Source of the DNA: an uncultured Acetatifactor sp. | Lineage (GTDB): Bacteria; Bacillota; Clostridia; Lachnospirales; Lachnospiraceae | Direction: 5' to 3' | DNA length: 64,000 bases | Assembly (NCBI GenBank): GCA_947589075.1 | Contig: CANQBS010000004.1 | Coordinates: forward strand, 1 to 64,000 | In this document: in pieces, positions 54,802 through 64,000 of the stretch | Layout of the letters: every line of letters starts with the position of its first letter | Numbering within the stretch: the first letter of the stretch is position 1 | The notes under the pieces: generated by a model | Told to the model about the DNA's origin: nothing | The model's database searches: none | Seen by the model: the letters and a program-made list of their open reading frames with translations, nothing else | Made by a program: the position numbers and the translations under genes

Positions 54802-54848
54802 AGATTTCGGACGATTTGTCCGGAGTCCTTTTTCTAATCTGTTATTGA

Positions 54849-55076
54849 GAAAATAACAACGTGGTAACGGAATGATAATAGAAAATTATTGCTTTTTCTG
54901 TTAAAACACTGCATAATAAAATAGAATAGATCAAGTGAAAAATGCAGGAAGAGGTAATTGGATTGAAAAATATAATCCAACTGGATTCATATCCGGTGCA
55001 GGCAACGCTGAGAATACTTTTGCAGGATAAAACGACAAAAAAATGAATTATTCCGTAATTCAGCCGCGAATATCAA
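54849..55076 (+). repeat. Partial direct duplication of the upstream region and 5' end of the 56587 gene
   Basis: 54871-55036 nearly identical to 56516-56682, then resumes at the sequence matching about 56777-56810 after an internal deletion between A-tracts. Confidence 0.9.
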
Positions 55077-55139: not shown

Positions 55140-56334
55140 ATGCCATATTTTGAATATAACCAAACTGTAAAAAATGTTGAATATTACGAAATCCTTGAAA
55201 ATCTCATGGAACGCTGGGAATATGAGATTGTTGAGTTTAAGGAAGCTAAAAGCAGCTATGATACAGACAAAATAGGCAGATATTTTTCCGCAATCAGCAA
55301 CGAAGCGAATCTGCACCAACAACAATACGGCTGGCTTGTTTTCGGCGTTGGCGAGGAACTTGTTTCAGTCTGCACCGAGTATTATGTGGAGATTATATGG
55401 TGCTGACAATATGGATAGGGATTATGCGATTTTCAAAATTCCATTTATCAATGTGGTAGATAAGGTTTTTGCAAAAGTAAGAAATCTGACATACAGGTAT
55501 ATGCCGAATCAGATGACATTGTTTCCGATGGAAACGGAGCAGTATGACAGTTGGCTGATGCGAGAGCTGCTTAACAACTGCATTGCACATACGAATTATC
55601 AGTTAGGCGGAAGGATCTATGTTGATGAATTTGAGGATAAGCTTAAATTTAGTAATCCAGGCGATTTTATTCCGCAGAAAATTGAGAATGTTTTGGAGGT
55701 AAGCTACCGACCGCCATATTATAGGAATAAACTATTAGCAGATACAATGATGGCATTTCATATGATAGAAACTGCATCATTTGGTATTCGGCGGGCATAC
55801 AATATTCAGAAAGCAAAATATTTTCCGATGCCAGATTATGATGTTAATTCTGGGACACATGTTGAAGTTACGATATATGGGAAGATCCTAAACGATAGTT
55901 ACATGCATATATTGTATGATCATCAGGATATGGATTTGCAGACGGTGTTTTTGCTTGACCGGATACAGAAAGGATTACCAGTAGAAAAGGAGGATGTGGA
56001 CAAACTACGTAGTCAAAAATTGGTAGAGGGTAGATCGACGAGTTTGTACTTATCTGCGTCAGCAGCACAAAGCATTGATAAAAGCGCTGCTTATATTAAA
56101 AACAAAGGGTTTGATGACAAGTATTATAAAGATTTGATTGTTGAGTATTTGAGGAAGTATGGAAAGGCAAAAAAGAAAGATATTCGGGAATTGCTTTGGG
56201 AAAAGCTGCCGGATGCGTTGTCAGATGCTCAAAAAGAGCATAAAGTCAGTAATTTATTGGCAGCGTTAAAGAAAGCTTATATTATTGACACAGATTCATC
56301 AAATCAGCAACGCTCGTATTGGGTATTGAAATAA
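55140..56334 (+). pseudogene. Decayed AlbA_2/Schlafen-like ATP-binding protein gene
   Basis: N-terminal AlbA_2-like region (EIVEFKEAKSSYDTDKIGRYFSAISNEANLHQQQYGWLVFGVG) in one frame; C-terminal part (MRELLNNCIAHTNYQLGGRIYVDEFEDKLKFSNPGDF, winged-helix C-terminus) in another; middle segment missing. Confidence 0.75.
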
Positions 56335-56586: not shown

Positions 56587-57546
56587 ATGCAGGAAGAGGT
56601 AATTGGATTGGAAAATATAATCCAACTGGATTCATATCCGGTGCAGGCAACGCTGAGAATACTTTTGCAGGATAAAACGACTAAAAAAAATATTATATGG
56701 GCGACAGATTCCTATGCCTCTTTTGGGGAGGCATACACAGATAGAAGTCAGATTACAGAAGATCAACTAAAAAAAATGAATTATTCCATAATTCAGCCGC
56801 GAATATCAAAAGATATGGAGCAACAAACACAGCGCACCAGAAAGAGTGCGGAGGTTTTTACTCCTGCCTGGCTTTGCAATAAGATGAATAATTTCTGTGA
56901 TGAGGAATGGTTTGGTTACAAAGATGTTTTTAACCGACAGGCTGAACATGAATGGATTCCTATAGAAAATAATATAAGATTTCCTGATGGGAAGGATTGG
57001 AAAGAATACATAGATTCTAAACGATTGGAAATTACATGCGGAGAAGCGCCTTATCTGGTTTCAAGGTATGATGTTTCCACTGGTAAGATGATTGATATTC
57101 CTAAGCGAGTTGGACTTCTTGACAGAAAACTCCGTGTTGTGAATGAAAATGCGACAGATGAATCAGAATGGATGAAGTGGGTGATTCGGGCATTTCAGAG
57201 CGTGTATGGATATGAATATCAAGGGGATAATTTATTGATTGCACGCATCAACTTGTTGATGACATTTGTTGATTATATGAATTACAAGTGGCACAGACAG
57301 CCAGGGAAAGCAGAACTTCGGAAGATCGCTAACATTATTAGCTGGAATATTTGGCAGATGGATGGACTGAAAGGAACAGTCCCTATAGGTATTTTAAAAG
57401 AGGAATATCATCAGATGTCGTTGTTTGAATTGTTTCAGGAGAAAGAAGAACAGGATGATGTGTCGGAAGTAAGGTGTAGGGTATATGATTGGCGGGCAAA
57501 TAGTTCTATTTTATACGAGACATTGGAGATAAACAGGAGGTATTGA
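56587..57546 (+). CDS. Restriction-modification-associated protein (subunit M-like), N-terminal half of an adenine methyltransferase
   Basis: RKSAEVFTPAWLCNKMNN (motif X-like) and LEITCGEAPYLVSRYD (motif I-like); no NPPY in this ORF. Confidence 0.7.
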   Translation: MQEEVIGLENIIQLDSYPVQATLRILLQDKTTKKNIIWATDSYASFGEAYTDRSQITEDQLKKMNYSIIQPRISKDMEQQTQRTRKSAEVFTPAWLCNKMNNFCDEEWFGYKDVFNRQAEHEWIPIENNIRFPDGKDWKEYIDSKRLEITCGEAPYLVSRYDVSTGKMIDIPKRVGLLDRKLRVVNENATDESEWMKWVIRAFQSVYGYEYQGDNLLIARINLLMTFVDYMNYKWHRQPGKAELRKIANIISWNIWQMDGLKGTVPIGILKEEYHQMSLFELFQEKEEQDDVSEVRCRVYDWRANSSILYETLEINRRY

Positions 57547-57551
57547 GCTTT

Positions 57552-57725
57552 ATGAATGATTACGAAAAACAGAAAGAGCATTATGACAAGGCTATGGAGA
57601 AGCTGATTGAGGCAGAAAAAGAGTTTCAAGAATTAACACCAGAGAACAAAGAGAAATATGTGGATCAAGTGCTTAGAATGTATGGAATGTCTGAAGTATT
57701 AAATATGTTTAAAAACCGAAGGTAG
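57552..57725 (+). CDS. Small hypothetical protein of the R-M-like operon
   Basis: MNDYEKQKEHYDKAMEKLIEAEKEF..., coiled-coil-like; just after the upstream ORF stop. Confidence 0.5.
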   Translation: MNDYEKQKEHYDKAMEKLIEAEKEFQELTPENKEKYVDQVLRMYGMSEVLNMFKNRR

Positions 57726-57730
57726 AGAAA

Positions 57731-58456
57731 ATGGCATTTAGTGAAGATATAAAAACAAAAGCTATGATTTCATGTGGAAGATGTTGTTGCATTTGTCATA
57801 AGTTTTGTGGAAATAACATGGAGGTACACCATATTAAAGCGCAGGCAGACGGTGGCGACAATTCTTTTGAGAATGCAATACCATTATGTTTTGACTGTCA
57901 CGCAATAGTACGACAATATGATCCAAGGCATCCTAAAGGAATAAAATTTTCGGAAAAGGAACTTATTCAACACAGGGATGCTTGGTATAAACATATACAG
58001 AAGGGGAATCAGGAAACCGAAAAGCAAAACAAATCAAATGAAGTTAAACCAATTAGAATTTATCATCAAAAGGGATATAAGGACATTGTACTGAATAAAG
58101 TTTCTAATGGCAAAGAAATGTTAAGGTATTTGATAGGAGCTTATGGGATTGTTTATGATGAGGAGGCAGAAACACTAGAAGAGGTAAAACTAATAGGTGA
58201 ATTTATACAGAGCATAAAAGAATTAGTGGATTTTGACGATTTATTAGATGAGCCCTATGACAGAATCATGACAGCGTTTAATCTAACTGAGAGTATTAAA
58301 GAATTAGGCGAAGCAGGGTTTTGGGTTTTTGTAGGAAAAGAGGATAGGGTAATAACAGGTGGTATAAAGGAACCAGAAATATGTCCAACATTATTAGTGC
58401 GTGTTGTTAGAAAAGACAGTAGTGAAATTATAAAAGTGAATTTTAAAGATGAGTAA
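57731..58456 (+). CDS. HNH endonuclease-domain protein
   Basis: CGRCCCICHKFCGNNMEVHHIKAQADGGDNSFENAIPLCFDCHAIV (Cys-coordinated HNH); C-terminal half unrecognised. Confidence 0.85.
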   Translation: MAFSEDIKTKAMISCGRCCCICHKFCGNNMEVHHIKAQADGGDNSFENAIPLCFDCHAIVRQYDPRHPKGIKFSEKELIQHRDAWYKHIQKGNQETEKQNKSNEVKPIRIYHQKGYKDIVLNKVSNGKEMLRYLIGAYGIVYDEEAETLEEVKLIGEFIQSIKELVDFDDLLDEPYDRIMTAFNLTESIKELGEAGFWVFVGKEDRVITGGIKEPEICPTLLVRVVRKDSSEIIKVNFKDE

Positions 58457-58493
58457 AAATAATTTGGTTAAAGCATAAGTAGGAGAAACTGCA

Positions 58494-59528
58494 ATGAAAT
58501 TCGATTATATAATAGGTAATCCGCCATATCAGGATGAAACAATTGGGGATAATAAAGGATATGCGCCGCCGGTATATCATAAATTCCTTGAAAATGCCTA
58601 TAAGATTGGTGATGTGGTAGAAATGATACATCCTGCCAGATTTTTGTTTAATGCAGGGAGTACACCGAAACAATGGAATGAACAGATGCTGAAAGATCCG
58701 CATCTCAAAGTACTATATTTTGAACAGGACAGCAGTAAAGTATTTAGTAATACGGATATTAAAGGCGGCGTAGTTATTACATATCATAATAACGCGAAAG
58801 AATATGGTGCAATCGGAACTTTTACGGCATATAACGAATTGAACACAATACTGAGAAAAGTGAGAAACCATACATCCTTTTCAAGCTTTAGCAATATAGT
58901 TGTTACCCGTACTGCCTATCGTTTAACGGATAAAATGCATCAAGATTATCCGGAAGCAATTGGACAATTAAGTGATGGACATGCCTATGATATGTCTACA
59001 AATATATTTGAGAGATTACCGCAGATATTTTTTGATGAAAAACCACAAGACGGAGCAGAGTATATACAGATTTTAGGACGTGAAAATAATGAACGAGTAT
59101 ATAAGTATGTAAAGCGTGATTATATTAATACAGTTATTAATCTGAATAAATATAAAATATTTTTGCCAAAGGCAAATGGAATTGGAGTATTAGGGGAAGT
59201 ATTGTCGGCTCCTATATTATGCGAACCAATGATAGGTGCAACAGAAACATTTTTAAGTATTGGAGCATTTGAACAAAAGAGTGAGGCAGAGGCGGTCTTG
59301 AAGTATATTAAGACAAAATTTGCCCGTGCATTGCTGGGAGTTTTGAAGACCACGCAAGATATTACACCGGAAAAATGGAAATGTGTTCCCATGCAGGATT
59401 TCACCTGTTTTTCAGATATTGACTGGTCAGCTACAATAGCAAACATAGATCGGCAGCTTTATGCAAAATATGGTTTGGATGAGAATGAGATCAATTTCAT
59501 TGAATCACATGTAAAGGAGATGGAATAA
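58494..59528 (+). CDS. Adenine-specific methyltransferase half (Eco57I-like) beginning at NPPY motif IV
   Basis: MKFDYIIGNPPYQDETIGDNKGYAPPVYHKFLENAYKIGDVVEMIHPARFLF; no motif I in this ORF; C-terminal TRD-like region. Confidence 0.8.
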   Translation: MKFDYIIGNPPYQDETIGDNKGYAPPVYHKFLENAYKIGDVVEMIHPARFLFNAGSTPKQWNEQMLKDPHLKVLYFEQDSSKVFSNTDIKGGVVITYHNNAKEYGAIGTFTAYNELNTILRKVRNHTSFSSFSNIVVTRTAYRLTDKMHQDYPEAIGQLSDGHAYDMSTNIFERLPQIFFDEKPQDGAEYIQILGRENNERVYKYVKRDYINTVINLNKYKIFLPKANGIGVLGEVLSAPILCEPMIGATETFLSIGAFEQKSEAEAVLKYIKTKFARALLGVLKTTQDITPEKWKCVPMQDFTCFSDIDWSATIANIDRQLYAKYGLDENEINFIESHVKEME

Positions 59529-59529
59529 G

Positions 59530-62500
59530 ATGAGCAATGCACCAAAGATTCAGTCTTTTACCCATGTGGTTCCGATGATCTATGCCTACAATACGCCGGG
59601 TGTAACCTACCATGATGGCTGGACAAAGATTGGCTATACGGAGAAACAGTCGGTTTCTCAAAGGCTGAACCAACAGACGCATACTGCTGGCATCAAGTGG
59701 GTACTGGCATGGCAGGATAATGCTATGTATAAGGACGGTTCGGGTGAATATTTCACAGACAGGGATTTTCACACATTTTTGGAGTCGGATCTGGATGTAG
59801 AGCGGGCGCCCGGAACGGAATGGTTCCATGTGGACGCGAAGGCATCTCAGGATTATTTCAATACCTTTTCCAGACGGGAAAGGGTAGAGAAAAATGAGGA
59901 AAAGAGTACATATGCTTTGCGAAAAGAGCAGCAGGAAGCTGTCGATATGACAAAGCAATATTTTGAAAATGGCGGAACGGAATTTCTGTGGAATGCGAAA
60001 CCGAGATTTGGAAAAACGCTGGCGTCTTATGATCTTGTGTGCCGGATGGGATTTAGCAAGGTGTTGATCGTTACCAACAGACCGAGTATAGCGAATTCAT
60101 GGGCGGATGATTTCCGGAAATTTATCGGCTGGAGGGGAGAGTTCTGTTTTGTCTCCGATACAGATGCCCTGAATGGGAAATCTGGCGTTATGTCGAGAAA
60201 TGAATATACGAAAGCAATGTTAGTTAAGAATGAAAAAGAACAGAAAGGCATGGTTGCATTTGAATCTCTGCAGGGGTTAAAAGGTTCGGTTTACTTTGGA
60301 GGGGAGTATGATAAATTAAAGTGGATCCGCGAGCTGGAATTTGATCTGTTGATTGTGGACGAGGCGCAGGAAGGTGTTGACACAATGCGCACGGACAGGG
60401 CTTTTCGCAATATTTCCAGAAAGCACACCCTGTATCTGTCAGGAACGCCTTTTAAGGCGCTGGCAAGTGAACAATTTGCAGAAAATCAGATTTTTAACTG
60501 GTCTTATGCAGATGAGCAGGCAGCGAAAGAAAGATGGGATGGCGAGGATTACAATCCCTATGAGGCGCTGCCTCGGCTTGCCATGTATACTTACCAGTTG
60601 TCCAATATGATCTATGACCGGATTGAAAAAGGCATGGAACTTCCGGAAAGTGAGGAAAGCGTTGACTATGCTTTTGACTTAAATGAATTCTTTATGACAA
60701 ATGAATACGGTAAATTTATACATGAGAAAGAAATCCGCAAATTTCTTCATGCGCTGGTTACACAGGAGAAATATCCTTTTTCTACGCCGGAACTTCGGGA
60801 AGAATTGTCTCATACTTTGTGGCTGTTGAACCGTGTGAACAGTGCAAAAGCATTAGCAAAGATATTGAAAGAAGATGAAGTGTTTCAGGATTACCACGTG
60901 ATTTTGGCTGCCGGAGACGGGCGAATGGAAGATGAAGAAGCGGCGGAGGCTGCATTTGATAAGGTGAGAGCGGCGGTCACGGAATATGATAAGACCATTA
61001 CATTGAGCGTTGGGCAGCTTACAGTGGGCGTTACGATTCCTGAATGGAGCGGTGTGTTGATGCTCTGCAATATGAAAAGTCCTTCTTCCTATATGCAGGC
61101 GGCATTTCGTGCGCAAAATCCCTGTATCCTAACCAGAAACAGGAAGCGTTATCGCAAAGAAACGGCGTATATTTTTGATTTTGATCCGGCGAGAACGCTT
61201 ATTGTTTTTGATGAGTTTGCAAACAATTTATCGGTCAATACCGTTAGCGGTCGTGGGACGGGAGAGGAAAGAAAAGATAATATTAAACGGCTGCTTAACT
61301 TTTTCCCGGTATTGGGCGAGGATGAAGAAGGCAGAATGGTAGAACTGGACGCGGCTTCCGTTCTTTCCATTCCAAGAAAGATCAAGAGTCAGGAAGTGGT
61401 ACGGAGAGGCTTTTTGTCTAATTTTCTGTTTCAAAATATTAGCAATGTATTTGGTGCGCCGAGCGTTGTAAGGGAGATTGTAGAAAAATTGGCGCCAGCC
61501 CATGAAGAACAGAAGAAAAACAGGAAAGATGTCTTAGAAGAAATTTCCAATGTGACAGTTGATGAAGATGGGGAAGTCGCGATCTCCAATGAAATTGTGA
61601 TAGGAAAAACACAGGAACTGTTTGGCAGGAAAGTATATGAACGAATGTCCGAAGATCTGCAGGAACATGTAAATGCGGTTGCCGAAAGCAGCGTATATGA
61701 AGTGGACAGAAAATTAAAAACATTGGTAGACAGCATAAAAGGAACTGTGAAGCAGAACGTTTTTGCCCCTGTAATGAACGAATACGATGTAAAAAAAGGG
61801 ATACAGAATCGTCTGGAAAGGCAGATTGACAATGAGATCGAGAATACCTTTGCCAAAATCCAAGGCGATTATAAGCAGCAGGCGATGATTGCCAGGACAG
61901 AGTTTGAAAGGAAGCAGAAAGAAGCCGAGACAGAGCAGGAAATACAAGCGGCAGAGGTGGAATTTCAGTCGAGCATGGACGAGGCAATGTTTGCTTTTGT
62001 TAAGACGGTTCAGGACAGTGTACAGAAAACGATTGAAGATAAGCCAAAAGATCTGATGGAACAATTGGAACGCCGCAAAGCCGAGCAGGAGAAAAGAACA
62101 GTCGAGGAGGAAGTCAGGGCACATTTGCGCGGTTTTTCCCGCACGATCCCAAGCTTTATCATGGCTTACGGGGACGGTAATCTGACGCTTGCCAATTTTG
62201 ACGACTATACGGAAGATGATGTGTTCCTTGAAGTGACGGGGATTACGGAAGATGATTTCCGTTTCCTGCGGGACGGCGGCGAGTATGAAAACCCTGAGAC
62301 TGGAGAAAAGGAATATTTTGCAGGGCATCTGTTTGACGAGGTGGTTTTTAATGATTCCATAGAGGAATTTTGGAAGAAAAAAGAGCTGCTTGCCAATTAT
62401 TTTGATGAAACTTTGGAAGAAGATATTTTTGATTATATACCGCCGCAGAAGACGAACCAGATCTTTACGCCGAGATGGATAGTGGTAAAGATGGTGGACG

Positions 62501-62859
62501 AGCTGGAAGCAAACAATCCGGGATGCTTTGATGATCCGGATAAAACATTTGCGGATCTGTATATGAAATCAGGACTTTATATAACAGAGATCGTAAAGCG
62601 GTTATATCGCAGCGAGGCGATTAAGGCTGTGTATCCGGACGATAAAGAACGCATCCGCCATATTCTGCAGAAGCAGGTGTATGGGATGGCGCCAACTCGT
62701 ATTATTTATTTAATTGCTATAAATTATATCCTAGGCTTTGATAAGGAGCTGAAAGCGGAAACACATAATTTTGTGGAGGCAGATGCTGCGGAGGCGGCAA
62801 AAGAAGGGAAGCTGGAAGAATTGGTGGAGAAGTGGTTTGGCAGTGATAAATCGATTTAA
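59530..62859 (+). CDS. GIY-YIG-like nuclease / DEAD-box-type helicase / partial methyltransferase fusion
   Basis: N-term PMIYAYNTPG...WTKIGYTEKQSVSQRLNQQ; NAKPRFGKTLASYDLV, LIVDEAQEGVDT, YLSGTPFKAL, SYMQAAFRAQNP; C-term QIFTPRWIVVKMVDELE...FADLYMKSGLYITEIVKRLY...QVYGMAPTRIIYLIAINYILGF. Confidence 0.8.
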   Translation: MSNAPKIQSFTHVVPMIYAYNTPGVTYHDGWTKIGYTEKQSVSQRLNQQTHTAGIKWVLAWQDNAMYKDGSGEYFTDRDFHTFLESDLDVERAPGTEWFHVDAKASQDYFNTFSRRERVEKNEEKSTYALRKEQQEAVDMTKQYFENGGTEFLWNAKPRFGKTLASYDLVCRMGFSKVLIVTNRPSIANSWADDFRKFIGWRGEFCFVSDTDALNGKSGVMSRNEYTKAMLVKNEKEQKGMVAFESLQGLKGSVYFGGEYDKLKWIRELEFDLLIVDEAQEGVDTMRTDRAFRNISRKHTLYLSGTPFKALASEQFAENQIFNWSYADEQAAKERWDGEDYNPYEALPRLAMYTYQLSNMIYDRIEKGMELPESEESVDYAFDLNEFFMTNEYGKFIHEKEIRKFLHALVTQEKYPFSTPELREELSHTLWLLNRVNSAKALAKILKEDEVFQDYHVILAAGDGRMEDEEAAEAAFDKVRAAVTEYDKTITLSVGQLTVGVTIPEWSGVLMLCNMKSPSSYMQAAFRAQNPCILTRNRKRYRKETAYIFDFDPARTLIVFDEFANNLSVNTVSGRGTGEERKDNIKRLLNFFPVLGEDEEGRMVELDAASVLSIPRKIKSQEVVRRGFLSNFLFQNISNVFGAPSVVREIVEKLAPAHEEQKKNRKDVLEEISNVTVDEDGEVAISNEIVIGKTQELFGRKVYERMSEDLQEHVNAVAESSVYEVDRKLKTLVDSIKGTVKQNVFAPVMNEYDVKKGIQNRLERQIDNEIENTFAKIQGDYKQQAMIARTEFERKQKEAETEQEIQAAEVEFQSSMDEAMFAFVKTVQDSVQKTIEDKPKDLMEQLERRKAEQEKRTVEEEVRAHLRGFSRTIPSFIMAYGDGNLTLANFDDYTEDDVFLEVTGITEDDFRFLRDGGEYENPETGEKEYFAGHLFDEVVFNDSIEEFWKKKELLANYFDETLEEDIFDYIPPQKTNQIFTPRWIVVKMVDELEANNPGCFDDPDKTFADLYMKSGLYITEIVKRLYRSEAIKAVYPDDKERIRHILQKQVYGMAPTRIIYLIAINYILGFDKELKAETHNFVEADAAEAAKEGKLEELVEKWFGSDKSI

Positions 62860-62951
62860 TATATGGGAGATTTAGGAGAATGTTTTGTCTAAGATAATAG
62901 TTGGGTACATATTTATATTCCCCAGAAAGCAAATGAAGGGAGATAGTGAAG

Positions 62952-64000
62952 TTGAAAAAAGATTTTGGCCTTTCACAGTTTGATGAATACCGAGAAGATA
63001 ATCGCCGAGAAGTAAAGAAGGCAAGCGCTGGTTTGCCAATTTCTCTTTGGGATACCTATTCTGCCTTTGCAAATTGCTATGGCGGGGTTATTATTCTTGG
63101 CGTTAAAGAAGAAAAAGACGGAAATTGGACAACTACCGGACTGCGGAATGCGTCAAAGCTTCGCAAAGATTTCTGGGACACGATCAACAATCCCAAGAAA
63201 GTAAGCATCAACTTGTTGTCAGAAGATGATGTTCAGATCTATGAAGTGGGTGATAAGAAAGATGTTATCATGGTGATCTATGTGCCGATGGCAAAGCGGG
63301 AGCAGAAGCCGATATATATATCAATAATGATATTTTTAATGGCACGTTCCGCCGAAACTATGAGGGTGACTATCATTGTACCAGACTGCAGGTAAAAGCG
63401 ATGCTTCGGGATCAAACGGAGCGCACAATGGACATGGAAGTGCTGGACAAGGTGCCTATGGACGATCTGAACTATGATACGATTCATGGTTATAGAAACA
63501 GCCACCGCTCGTTGAAAGAGGGGCATCTGTTTGAACGCCTGAGCGATCACGAATATTTGAGAAGTATCGGTGCGGCTGCAATTTCTGAGGAAGACGGACA
63601 ACTGCATCCCACAACAGCGGGTATGCTGATGTTTGGAGATGAGTATAATATCGTGCGTCATTTCCCAGAGTATTTCCTGGATTATAGGGAGGAATTAGAT
63701 CCTACCACCCGCTGGAGCGACAGATTGCAGTCCAGTTCCGGTGAGTGGTCTGGAAATGTGTGCGATTTTTATTTCAGAGTCTATAATAAAATTATCAAAG
63801 ATGTCAAAGTGCCGTTCAAGATGTCCGGCGGAGAACGCATTGACGATACTCCGGTACACAAGGCGCTTCGTGAAGCTTTGGCAAATTGTTTGATTCATGC
63901 AGACTATCATGGCTTGCGTGGTATCGTGATTAGAAAAGAAACTGACAAGCTGATTTTGGCAAATCCCGGTTATATCAGGACCGGCAAAAAGCAGATGCGT
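62952..64000 (+). pseudogene. AlbA_2-type ATP-binding protein, frameshifted at an (AT)5 tract; continues beyond the window
   Basis: Frame 1 encodes ...VPMAKREQKPIYIS then runs out of frame; removing one AT gives QKPIYINNDIFNGTFRRNYEGDYHCTRLQVKAMLRDQ... open to the window end (...KLILANPGYIRTGKKQMR). Confidence 0.8.

What the first reader, a model, noticed from the sequence alone, without database searches (positions are those of the whole stretch)
56587..62859. R-M-like operon with methyltransferase motifs split over separate ORFs around an HNH gene
Seen directly: ORF 56587-57546 has motif X- and motif I-like sequences (EVFTPAWLCNK; LEITCGEAPYLVSRYD) but no NPPY. ORF 58494-59528 starts almost exactly at catalytic motif IV (DYIIGNPPYQDE) and has no motif I. 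A 60-aa ORF and an HNH endonuclease lie between them. A 1109-aa GIY-YIG/helicase follows 1 bp after the NPPY ORF. All genes are co-oriented and tightly packed. N6-adenine methyltransferases normally carry motifs X/I and IV in one chain (established). The inference is a multi-subunit restriction or defence complex whose methyltransferase must assemble in trans, with HNH and GIY-YIG as alternative nucleases.
Basis: partly seen in the sequence, partly recalled or inferred. Interest (0 to 1): 0.85.

Follow-up and report, generated by a model that had tools for sequence, protein, structure and literature searches.

The report
Restriction system with a shared half-methyltransferase
This is a widespread bacterial DNA-defence operon whose adenine methyltransferase is split into two proteins; comparison of many relatives suggests that one half, carrying the catalytic motif and the target recognition, is shared by a modification partner and by the DNA-cutting helicase, an arrangement I found no published description of.

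Summary
M1 (56587-57546) has methyltransferase motifs X, I, II and III but no motif IV. M2 (58494-59528) starts at motif IV (MKFDYIIGNPPY). A 1109-aa GIY-YIG/helicase protein (HEL) follows 1 bp later. The split is conserved, not a local accident: of 86 typed loci, 48 are split, 26 fuse M1::M2 and 12 fuse HEL::M2, so M2 has two fusion partners. M1 keeps the SAM-binding signature (97/97); HEL's half does not (KSG loop, no motif II acid in 70/70). M2 is swapped between otherwise near-identical systems (M1 92%, HEL 97%, M2 30% identical). Two complete phage genomes carry M1 and M2 without HEL; 11 phage records carry M1 alone. Best reading: M1+M2 methylates; HEL takes its specificity from the same M2 to restrict. 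Whether M1 and HEL compete for M2 is inferred. The HNH gene is one of many unrelated cassettes found in the M1-M2 gap, so probably not an alternative nuclease. The parts are already listed in PADLOC as methyltransferase/type IIG; I found no published description of the architecture.

The parts
56587..57546 (+). M1: SAM-side half of an N6-adenine methyltransferase (motifs X, I, II, III; no motif IV); start may be TTG 56608
   Evidence: PADLOC PDLC03390 MTase_II E 3e-105; motif signature in 97/97 homologues; no motif IV in 86/86 M1-only ORFs
57552..57725 (+). 57-aa coiled-coil-like small ORF of the inserted cassette (listed as 57543-57725, 60 aa); function unknown
   Evidence: ORF list; ribosome-binding-like CAGGAGG before ATG; no curated family above cut-off
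57731..58456 (+). HNH nuclease gene, inserted accessory cassette between M1 and M2
   Evidence: Pfam HNH E 2e-6; absent from M1-M2 junctions of relatives; other genes occupy this slot elsewhere; HNH relatives in other contexts
58494..59528 (+). M2: catalytic half starting at motif IV (NPPY, residues 9-12) plus target-recognition region
   Evidence: Pfam Eco57I E 6e-16; PADLOC PDLC03375 and C-terminal part of PDLC03626; middle region variable and exchanged between systems
59530..62859 (+). HEL: GIY-YIG nuclease - SF2 helicase - half-methyltransferase protein
   Evidence: ResIII E 4e-10; T5orf172/MUG113 N-terminus; PADLOC PDLC03626 REase_MTase_IIG
59578..59862 (+). T5orf172/GIY-YIG nuclease domain of HEL (residues 17-111)
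   Evidence: Pfam T5orf172 21.6 bits against cut-off 20
59911..60453 (+). SF2 helicase ResIII domain of HEL (residues 128-308)
   Evidence: Pfam; RFGKT, DEAQ, SGTP and QAAFRAQ visible in the translation
62437..62856 (+). HEL C-terminal half-methyltransferase: motif X NQIFTP, degenerate motif I DLYMKSG, motif II without acid, ends before motif IV
   Evidence: conserved K at the GxG position in 69/70 and no motif II acid in 70/70 homologues; homologous to the M1-prime half
54803..55076 (+). partial second copy of the M1 promoter and 5' end (direct repeats, 91% over 249 nt and 98% over 40 nt), separated from the operon by a decayed ATP-binding gene
   Evidence: direct repeats; tblastn match of M1 residues 1-37

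Best explanation
The core is a three-protein restriction-modification system, M1-M2-HEL. M2 carries the catalytic NPPY motif and the target-recognition region. With M1, which supplies the SAM-binding half, it forms the modification methyltransferase that marks host sites. The GIY-YIG/helicase HEL ends in a second, degenerate copy of that SAM half and uses it to bind the same M2, so HEL reads the same target but is predicted to move on and cut unmodified DNA instead of methylating it. Because motif IV (strand beta-4) packs beside beta-1 of the SAM half in this fold, one M2 should accept M1 or HEL but not both, making modification and restriction alternative states of one specificity subunit. 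Shown here: the split and its conservation, both fusions, the motif differences, M2 exchange, and phage copies without HEL. Inferred: physical binding, methylation, cleavage, and competition for M2.
For: Both Rosetta-stone fusions exist: M1::M2 with separate HEL (26 typed loci) and HEL::M2 with separate M1 (12), besides 48 split loci. M1 has E-x-x-C-G-E-(A/V)-P and a motif II acid in 97/97; HEL's half has K at the first Gly of GxG in 69/70 and no motif II acid in 70/70. In Enterococcus, Paenisporosarcina and Arthrobacter plasmids M1 is replaced by a different half (M1-prime, 205-253 aa, EPAAGEGAFL, LYGIELLEDN, no motif IV) beside HEL::M2 or HEL+M2; M1-prime matches the motif X-I region of a type I HsdM (3ufb, E 0.0015). 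Every HEL locus with complete flanks in a class-wide survey (22/22) has M1 or M1-prime. M2 is exchanged while M1 and HEL stay: L055/L060 92/30/97% identity for M1/M2/HEL; rank correlation of pairwise identity M1-HEL 0.59, M2 target region-HEL -0.03. Phages PTm1 and FNU4 have M1+M2 and no HEL anywhere in the record. AlphaFold: M1::M2 pLDDT 90.7, pTM 0.85; HEL-half::M2 pLDDT 84.5, pTM 0.79; both match N6-adenine methyltransferases over most of their length.
Against: No complex was modelled and no activity measured. The KSG loop is so conserved that it probably binds something, so the HEL half may not be dead. In M1::M2 fusions the covalent link should favour M1, so free competition for M2 may not hold there. 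The HEL-half::M2 model comes from a relative (L091) whose half is only 25% identical to the window's. TM-scores are modest (0.3-0.5). M1 and the HEL half do not find each other directly, only through M1-prime.
Confidence: 0.65

Rival explanations
1. Two active methyltransferases share M2: M1+M2 methylates one strand or half-site and HEL+M2 methylates the other, with HEL also cutting, so that KSG is a working variant SAM loop rather than a dead one.
For: KSG and the preceding Asp are almost invariant; HEL-half::M2 is predicted as a complete CamA-like methyltransferase; free-standing KxG::M2 proteins (about 510-530 aa, DPACKTGVFLREI) exist next to M1-prime.
Against: The motif II acid is missing in 70/70; a separate SAM-competent half is retained in every complete locus, which would be unnecessary if the KSG half methylated; phages that keep only the modification part keep M1+M2, not HEL+M2.
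Confidence: 0.2
2. One stable complex of M1, M2 and HEL, like type I M2S1R2: M2 sits with M1 permanently and HEL's terminal half docks on M1:M2 without replacing M1. No competition; the methylation state switches the same complex between activities.
For: Widespread M1::M2 fusions with a conserved HEL half; M1 and HEL co-vary (rho 0.59); type I operons have separate R, M and S genes (PMC3874165).
Against: HEL::M2 fusions with a separate M1 place the HEL half exactly where M1 sits in M1::M2 (motif order X-I-II-III-IV), pointing to the same docking surface.
Confidence: 0.25
3. M1 and M2 are fragments of an interrupted methyltransferase gene and the HNH gene is a homing-type insertion that broke it.
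For: M1 ends near motif III, M2 starts at motif IV, and an HNH gene lies between them in the window.
Against: M1 and M2 are separate and adjacent without HNH in many genera; M1 motifs are under tight conservation; the gap holds many unrelated genes in other loci; M2 has its own ribosome-binding-like sequence.
Confidence: 0.03

Closest known systems
Type ISP enzymes (LlaGI, LlaBIII)
   Same: ATP-dependent nuclease, helicase and N6-adenine methyltransferase with target recognition; LlaGI and LlaBIII are Foldseek matches of the models
   Different: Type ISP is one polypeptide with a complete methyltransferase (general knowledge; PMC4872093); here the methyltransferase is split, the nuclease domain is GIY-YIG-like, and a second SAM half is encoded separately
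PADLOC models REase_MTase_IIG (PDLC03626) and MTase_II (PDLC03390, PDLC03375)
   Same: M1, M2 and HEL match these models, so the proteins are already listed as R-M parts; PDLC03626 is of the HEL::M2 fusion type
   Different: The models name proteins one by one; they do not describe the shared half or the need for M1
Type I R-M (HsdM, HsdS, HsdR)
   Same: Separate modification, specificity and helicase/nuclease genes; specificity subunit exchanged while the others stay; accessory genes inserted in the operon
   Different: HsdM holds motifs X-I and IV in one chain and HsdS has no catalytic motif (general knowledge); here motif IV sits on the exchangeable specificity subunit
Naturally split m5C methyltransferases M.AquI and M.EcoHK31I
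   Same: Two polypeptides form one methyltransferase (PMC3404938)
   Different: Cytosine-5 enzymes cut at other points (motifs IX-X or IX separate); no second competing half on a nuclease
CamA, M.BseCI and BrxX/PglX adenine methyltransferases
   Same: Fold and motif order of the assembled M1::M2 and HEL-half::M2
   Different: Single-chain enzymes; BREX components other than PglX were not looked for

Membership tests
gamma-class (Eco57I/TaqI-like) N6-adenine methyltransferase | motif order X-I-II-III-IV-target domain in the assembled enzyme | tested here: met
   M1::M2 fusions have this order in one chain; model pLDDT 90.7 matches N6A methyltransferases
gamma-class (Eco57I/TaqI-like) N6-adenine methyltransferase | motifs I and IV in one polypeptide | tested here: not met
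   separate ORFs in the window and in 48 of 86 typed loci
gamma-class (Eco57I/TaqI-like) N6-adenine methyltransferase | methylates adenine N6 | not testable with these tools
   no methylome or enzyme data
Type IIG / Type ISP R-M | nuclease, methyltransferase and target recognition in one polypeptide | tested here: not met
   window has three proteins; relatives with HEL::M2 in one chain still encode M1 separately
Type IIG / Type ISP R-M | helicase plus methyltransferase homology | tested here: met
   PDLC03626 E 1e-20 for HEL and 9e-31 for M2
Type I R-M | HsdM with both SAM and NPPY motifs | tested here: not met
   M1 has no motif IV
Type I R-M | separate exchangeable specificity subunit | tested here: met
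   M2 swapped between near-identical M1/HEL pairs
GIY-YIG nuclease | GIY-YIG family domain | tested here: met
   T5orf172 21.6 bits against cut-off 20 in the window; 27-30 bits in two relatives
GIY-YIG nuclease | nuclease activity | not testable with these tools
   no assay
BREX | PglX with PglZ and BrxC/BrxL genes | not tested
   no PglZ or BrxC search was run; the neighbouring ORFs scanned gave no such family

The most novel reading that the evidence does not exclude
A restriction-modification logic in which one catalytic/target-recognition half-enzyme is partitioned between a SAM-loaded partner (modify) and a pseudo-SAM partner on a helicase-nuclease (restrict), and in which phages carry the lone modification partner (M1) as a counter-defence that captures the host's own M2, methylating phage DNA and starving HEL.
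Probability: 0.25. Interest if true: 0.82.

Novelty: new variant of a known kind. Interest (0 to 1): 0.63.

Why it matters
R-M systems must keep cutting and protecting activities on the same sequence. A shared half-enzyme would do this by construction, and the exchange data suggest it lets the system change target by replacing one gene. Phage-borne lone M1 would be a new, easily tested kind of anti-restriction.

Tried and rejected
HNH as a working subunit: rejected, because the slot is variable and HNH relatives occur elsewhere. Local gene interruption: rejected. Sequence search of solved structures with M1, M2, HEL and HEL::M2: nothing useful; M1-prime gave a weak HsdM match; the HEL half and a KxG::M2 protein gave none. 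Direct profile match M1 against HEL half failed and is linked only through M1-prime. Literature searches for a described system found none; the library lacks most subscription journals and preprints, so absence is weak evidence. One search was malformed. The 57-aa ORF was not explained. A joint model of M1+M2 or HEL+M2 from the window was not possible with the structure tool.
Full report
What is in the window. The operon reads M1 (56587-57546), a 57-60-aa ORF, an HNH gene (57731-58456), M2 (58494-59528) and HEL (59530-62859), all on the + strand. M1 has motifs X, I, II and III and no motif IV. M2 starts with MKFDYIIGNPPYQDE and matches only profile positions 73-171 of the Pfam Eco57I model. 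HEL starts 1 bp after the M2 stop and has a GIY-YIG (T5orf172) N-terminus and a ResIII helicase. PADLOC models recognise M1 as MTase_II (E 3e-105), M2 as MTase_II and the end of a 1359-aa REase_MTase_IIG, and HEL as that same IIG model.

The split is a conserved property. In two same-genus relatives with the operon (G006, G037) M1, M2 and HEL are adjacent without the small ORF and HNH. Of 86 M1 rows whose locus could be typed, 48 are split, 26 fuse M1::M2, and 12 fuse HEL::M2 with a separate M1. On the M1 tree the fused/split state of M1::M2 changes at least 13 times (at least 5 forced by well-supported branches), and the window's nearest M1 relatives are not fused. So M2 has been joined at its N-terminus, just before motif IV, to either of two different SAM halves, while the other half stays in the operon. 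That is the central evidence that both halves use M2.

The two halves differ. M1 has E-x-x-C-G-E-(A/V)-P in 97/97 and an acidic motif II residue in 97/97. The HEL half has Asp in 70/70, Lys at the first Gly position of GxG in 69/70, the last Gly in 70/70, and no motif II acid in 70/70. From general knowledge of class I methyltransferases the motif II acid holds the SAM ribose, so the HEL half is predicted to bind SAM poorly or differently; its high conservation argues that it still does something. In Enterococcus, Paenisporosarcina and Arthrobacter plasmids and several genomes, M1 is replaced by a distinct half, M1-prime (FLEPAAGEGAFL, LYGIELLEDN, no motif IV), which aligns with the X-I region of type I HsdM in the PDB. 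M1 and M1-prime are related (hhalign 98.9%), and M1-prime and the HEL half are related (93%). In some genomes the KxG half is fused to M2 as a separate protein of about 510-530 aa and the helicase is its own gene, again with M1-prime upstream (L127, L130, L132); two phage records show the same layout (L168, L169). In a survey centred on HEL, all 22 loci with complete flanks carried M1 or M1-prime; three were cut by contig ends; a few of these genomes repeat loci.

M2 is the exchangeable part. Among 64 complete loci the mean pairwise identity of the M2 central region (101-265) is 35%, against 57-59% for its ends, 53% for M1 and 55% for HEL. Pairs exist with near-identical M1 and HEL but different M2: L055/L060 92/97/30%, L066/L062 95/97/60%, L084/L082 93/91/54%, L053/L051 96/93/61% (M1/HEL/M2). 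Pairwise identities of M1 and HEL correlate (rho 0.59), while the M2 target region correlates with neither (0.09 and -0.03). Since HEL changes little when M2 is replaced, its target most simply comes from M2, even where M2 is fused to M1. One viral-database contig (L170) has HEL::M2 followed by two further M2 copies, one of them inverted, a neighbouring ORF that looks like a tyrosine recombinase, and inverted repeats of 33 nt (97%) and about 160 nt (76%) that include motif IV coding sequence, suggesting switching by inversion at the point where the proteins split.

Phage copies. Tenacibaculum phage PTm1 (224,680 bp) carries M2 and M1 and no HEL; Fusobacterium phage FNU4 carries an M1::M2 protein and no HEL. 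This fits M1+M2 being sufficient for modification. Eleven further records (13.8 and 31 kb GenBank phage clones, and IMG/VR contigs up to 57 kb) carry M1 with intact motifs and no M2 or other Eco57I-type motif IV protein in the record. The HEL search of these records had no positive control among them; the Eco57I search did. Some are fragments, so M2 may lie outside; the 56.7 and 57.1 kb records make this less likely for those two. The counter-defence reading (phage M1 borrowing the host's M2) is a prediction, not a result.

Structure. AlphaFold of an M1::M2 fusion (L051, 73-row alignment) gives pLDDT 90.7 and pTM 0.85; Foldseek finds BrxX, CamA, M.BseCI, MmeI, LlaGI and TaqI. A HEL-half::M2 stretch (L091) gives pLDDT 84.5 and pTM 0.79 and finds CamA first, then PglX, M.BseCI, BpuSI and Type ISP enzymes. 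TM-scores are 0.3-0.5, so fold class rather than detail is supported. In both models the strand before NPPY follows the SAM half's strands in the same order. In this fold beta-4 lies beside beta-1 (general knowledge), so one M2 should hold one half at a time. This competition is inferred; a permanent M1-M2-HEL complex is the main rival.

The HNH gene. Other loci carry HEPN-MNT-like pairs, DUF262/GmrSD-like, DUF1016-like, RhuM-like, GIY-YIG or AAA genes between M1 and M2, or (L029) between M2 and HEL; these labels are my reading of the translations, not tool hits, except the L029 GIY-YIG. The window HNH has a full-length relative (43-47%) and partial relatives in unrelated neighbourhoods. It is best read as a cassette carried by the operon.

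Comparison with known systems. It works like an ATP-dependent R-M system and its parts are already filed under methyltransferase or type IIG models. It fails the single-chain definition of type IIG/ISP and the HsdM definition of type I. Known split methyltransferases (M.AquI, M.EcoHK31I) are cytosine-5 enzymes cut elsewhere (PMC3404938). I found no paper describing a motif IV subunit shared by two SAM halves, but the paper library is partial.

Verdict. Observation confirmed, interpretation partly supported; a new variant of a known kind. The in-trans methyltransferase is close to certain on comparative evidence (about 0.9), M2 as HEL's specificity source is likely (about 0.75), competition between M1 and HEL is plausible (about 0.5), and phage M1 as counter-defence is open (about 0.25-0.3).

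Noticed in passing
IMG/VR contigs behind L104, L107-L110, L141, L142, L151, L157; GenBank phage clones MT836051 (L136) and MT836154 (L137): Phage records with an M1 gene with intact motifs but no M2/Eco57I-type motif IV protein and no HEL match in the record; possible counter-defence gene.
   Followed up: partly
L170:6882-12880 (same contig as L150): HEL::M2 followed by two extra M2 copies, one inverted, a tyrosine-recombinase-like ORF and inverted repeats covering motif IV: looks like a specificity switch by inversion.
   Followed up: partly
L014:1946-2818 (-): A second, diverged M2-like ORF lies upstream of M1 on the opposite strand.
   Followed up: no
window 55140-56334: AlbA_2/HATPase gene decayed by an internal deletion of about 170 codons and a frameshift, compared with the intact 584-aa relative in L072.
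   Followed up: partly
window 54803-55076: Partial duplicate of the terminator-like stem, promoter region and 5' end of M1 (91% over 249 nt), flanking the decayed gene; possibly a remnant of an earlier copy of the operon.
   Followed up: partly
window 62946-64000: A second AlbA_2 (Schlafen-type) gene directly downstream of HEL, read in two frames (62946-63395 and 63401 onwards), so probably also frameshifted.
   Followed up: no
L013:10016-12701: Closest M1 relative (85%) lies in a decayed operon: M2 is gone and a phosphatase-like ORF is joined to the C-terminal part of HEL.
   Followed up: no
AP019524 (L099:5426-6433): Phage M1 is annotated 'type II restriction endonuclease', which looks like a misannotation of a half-methyltransferase.
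   Followed up: no
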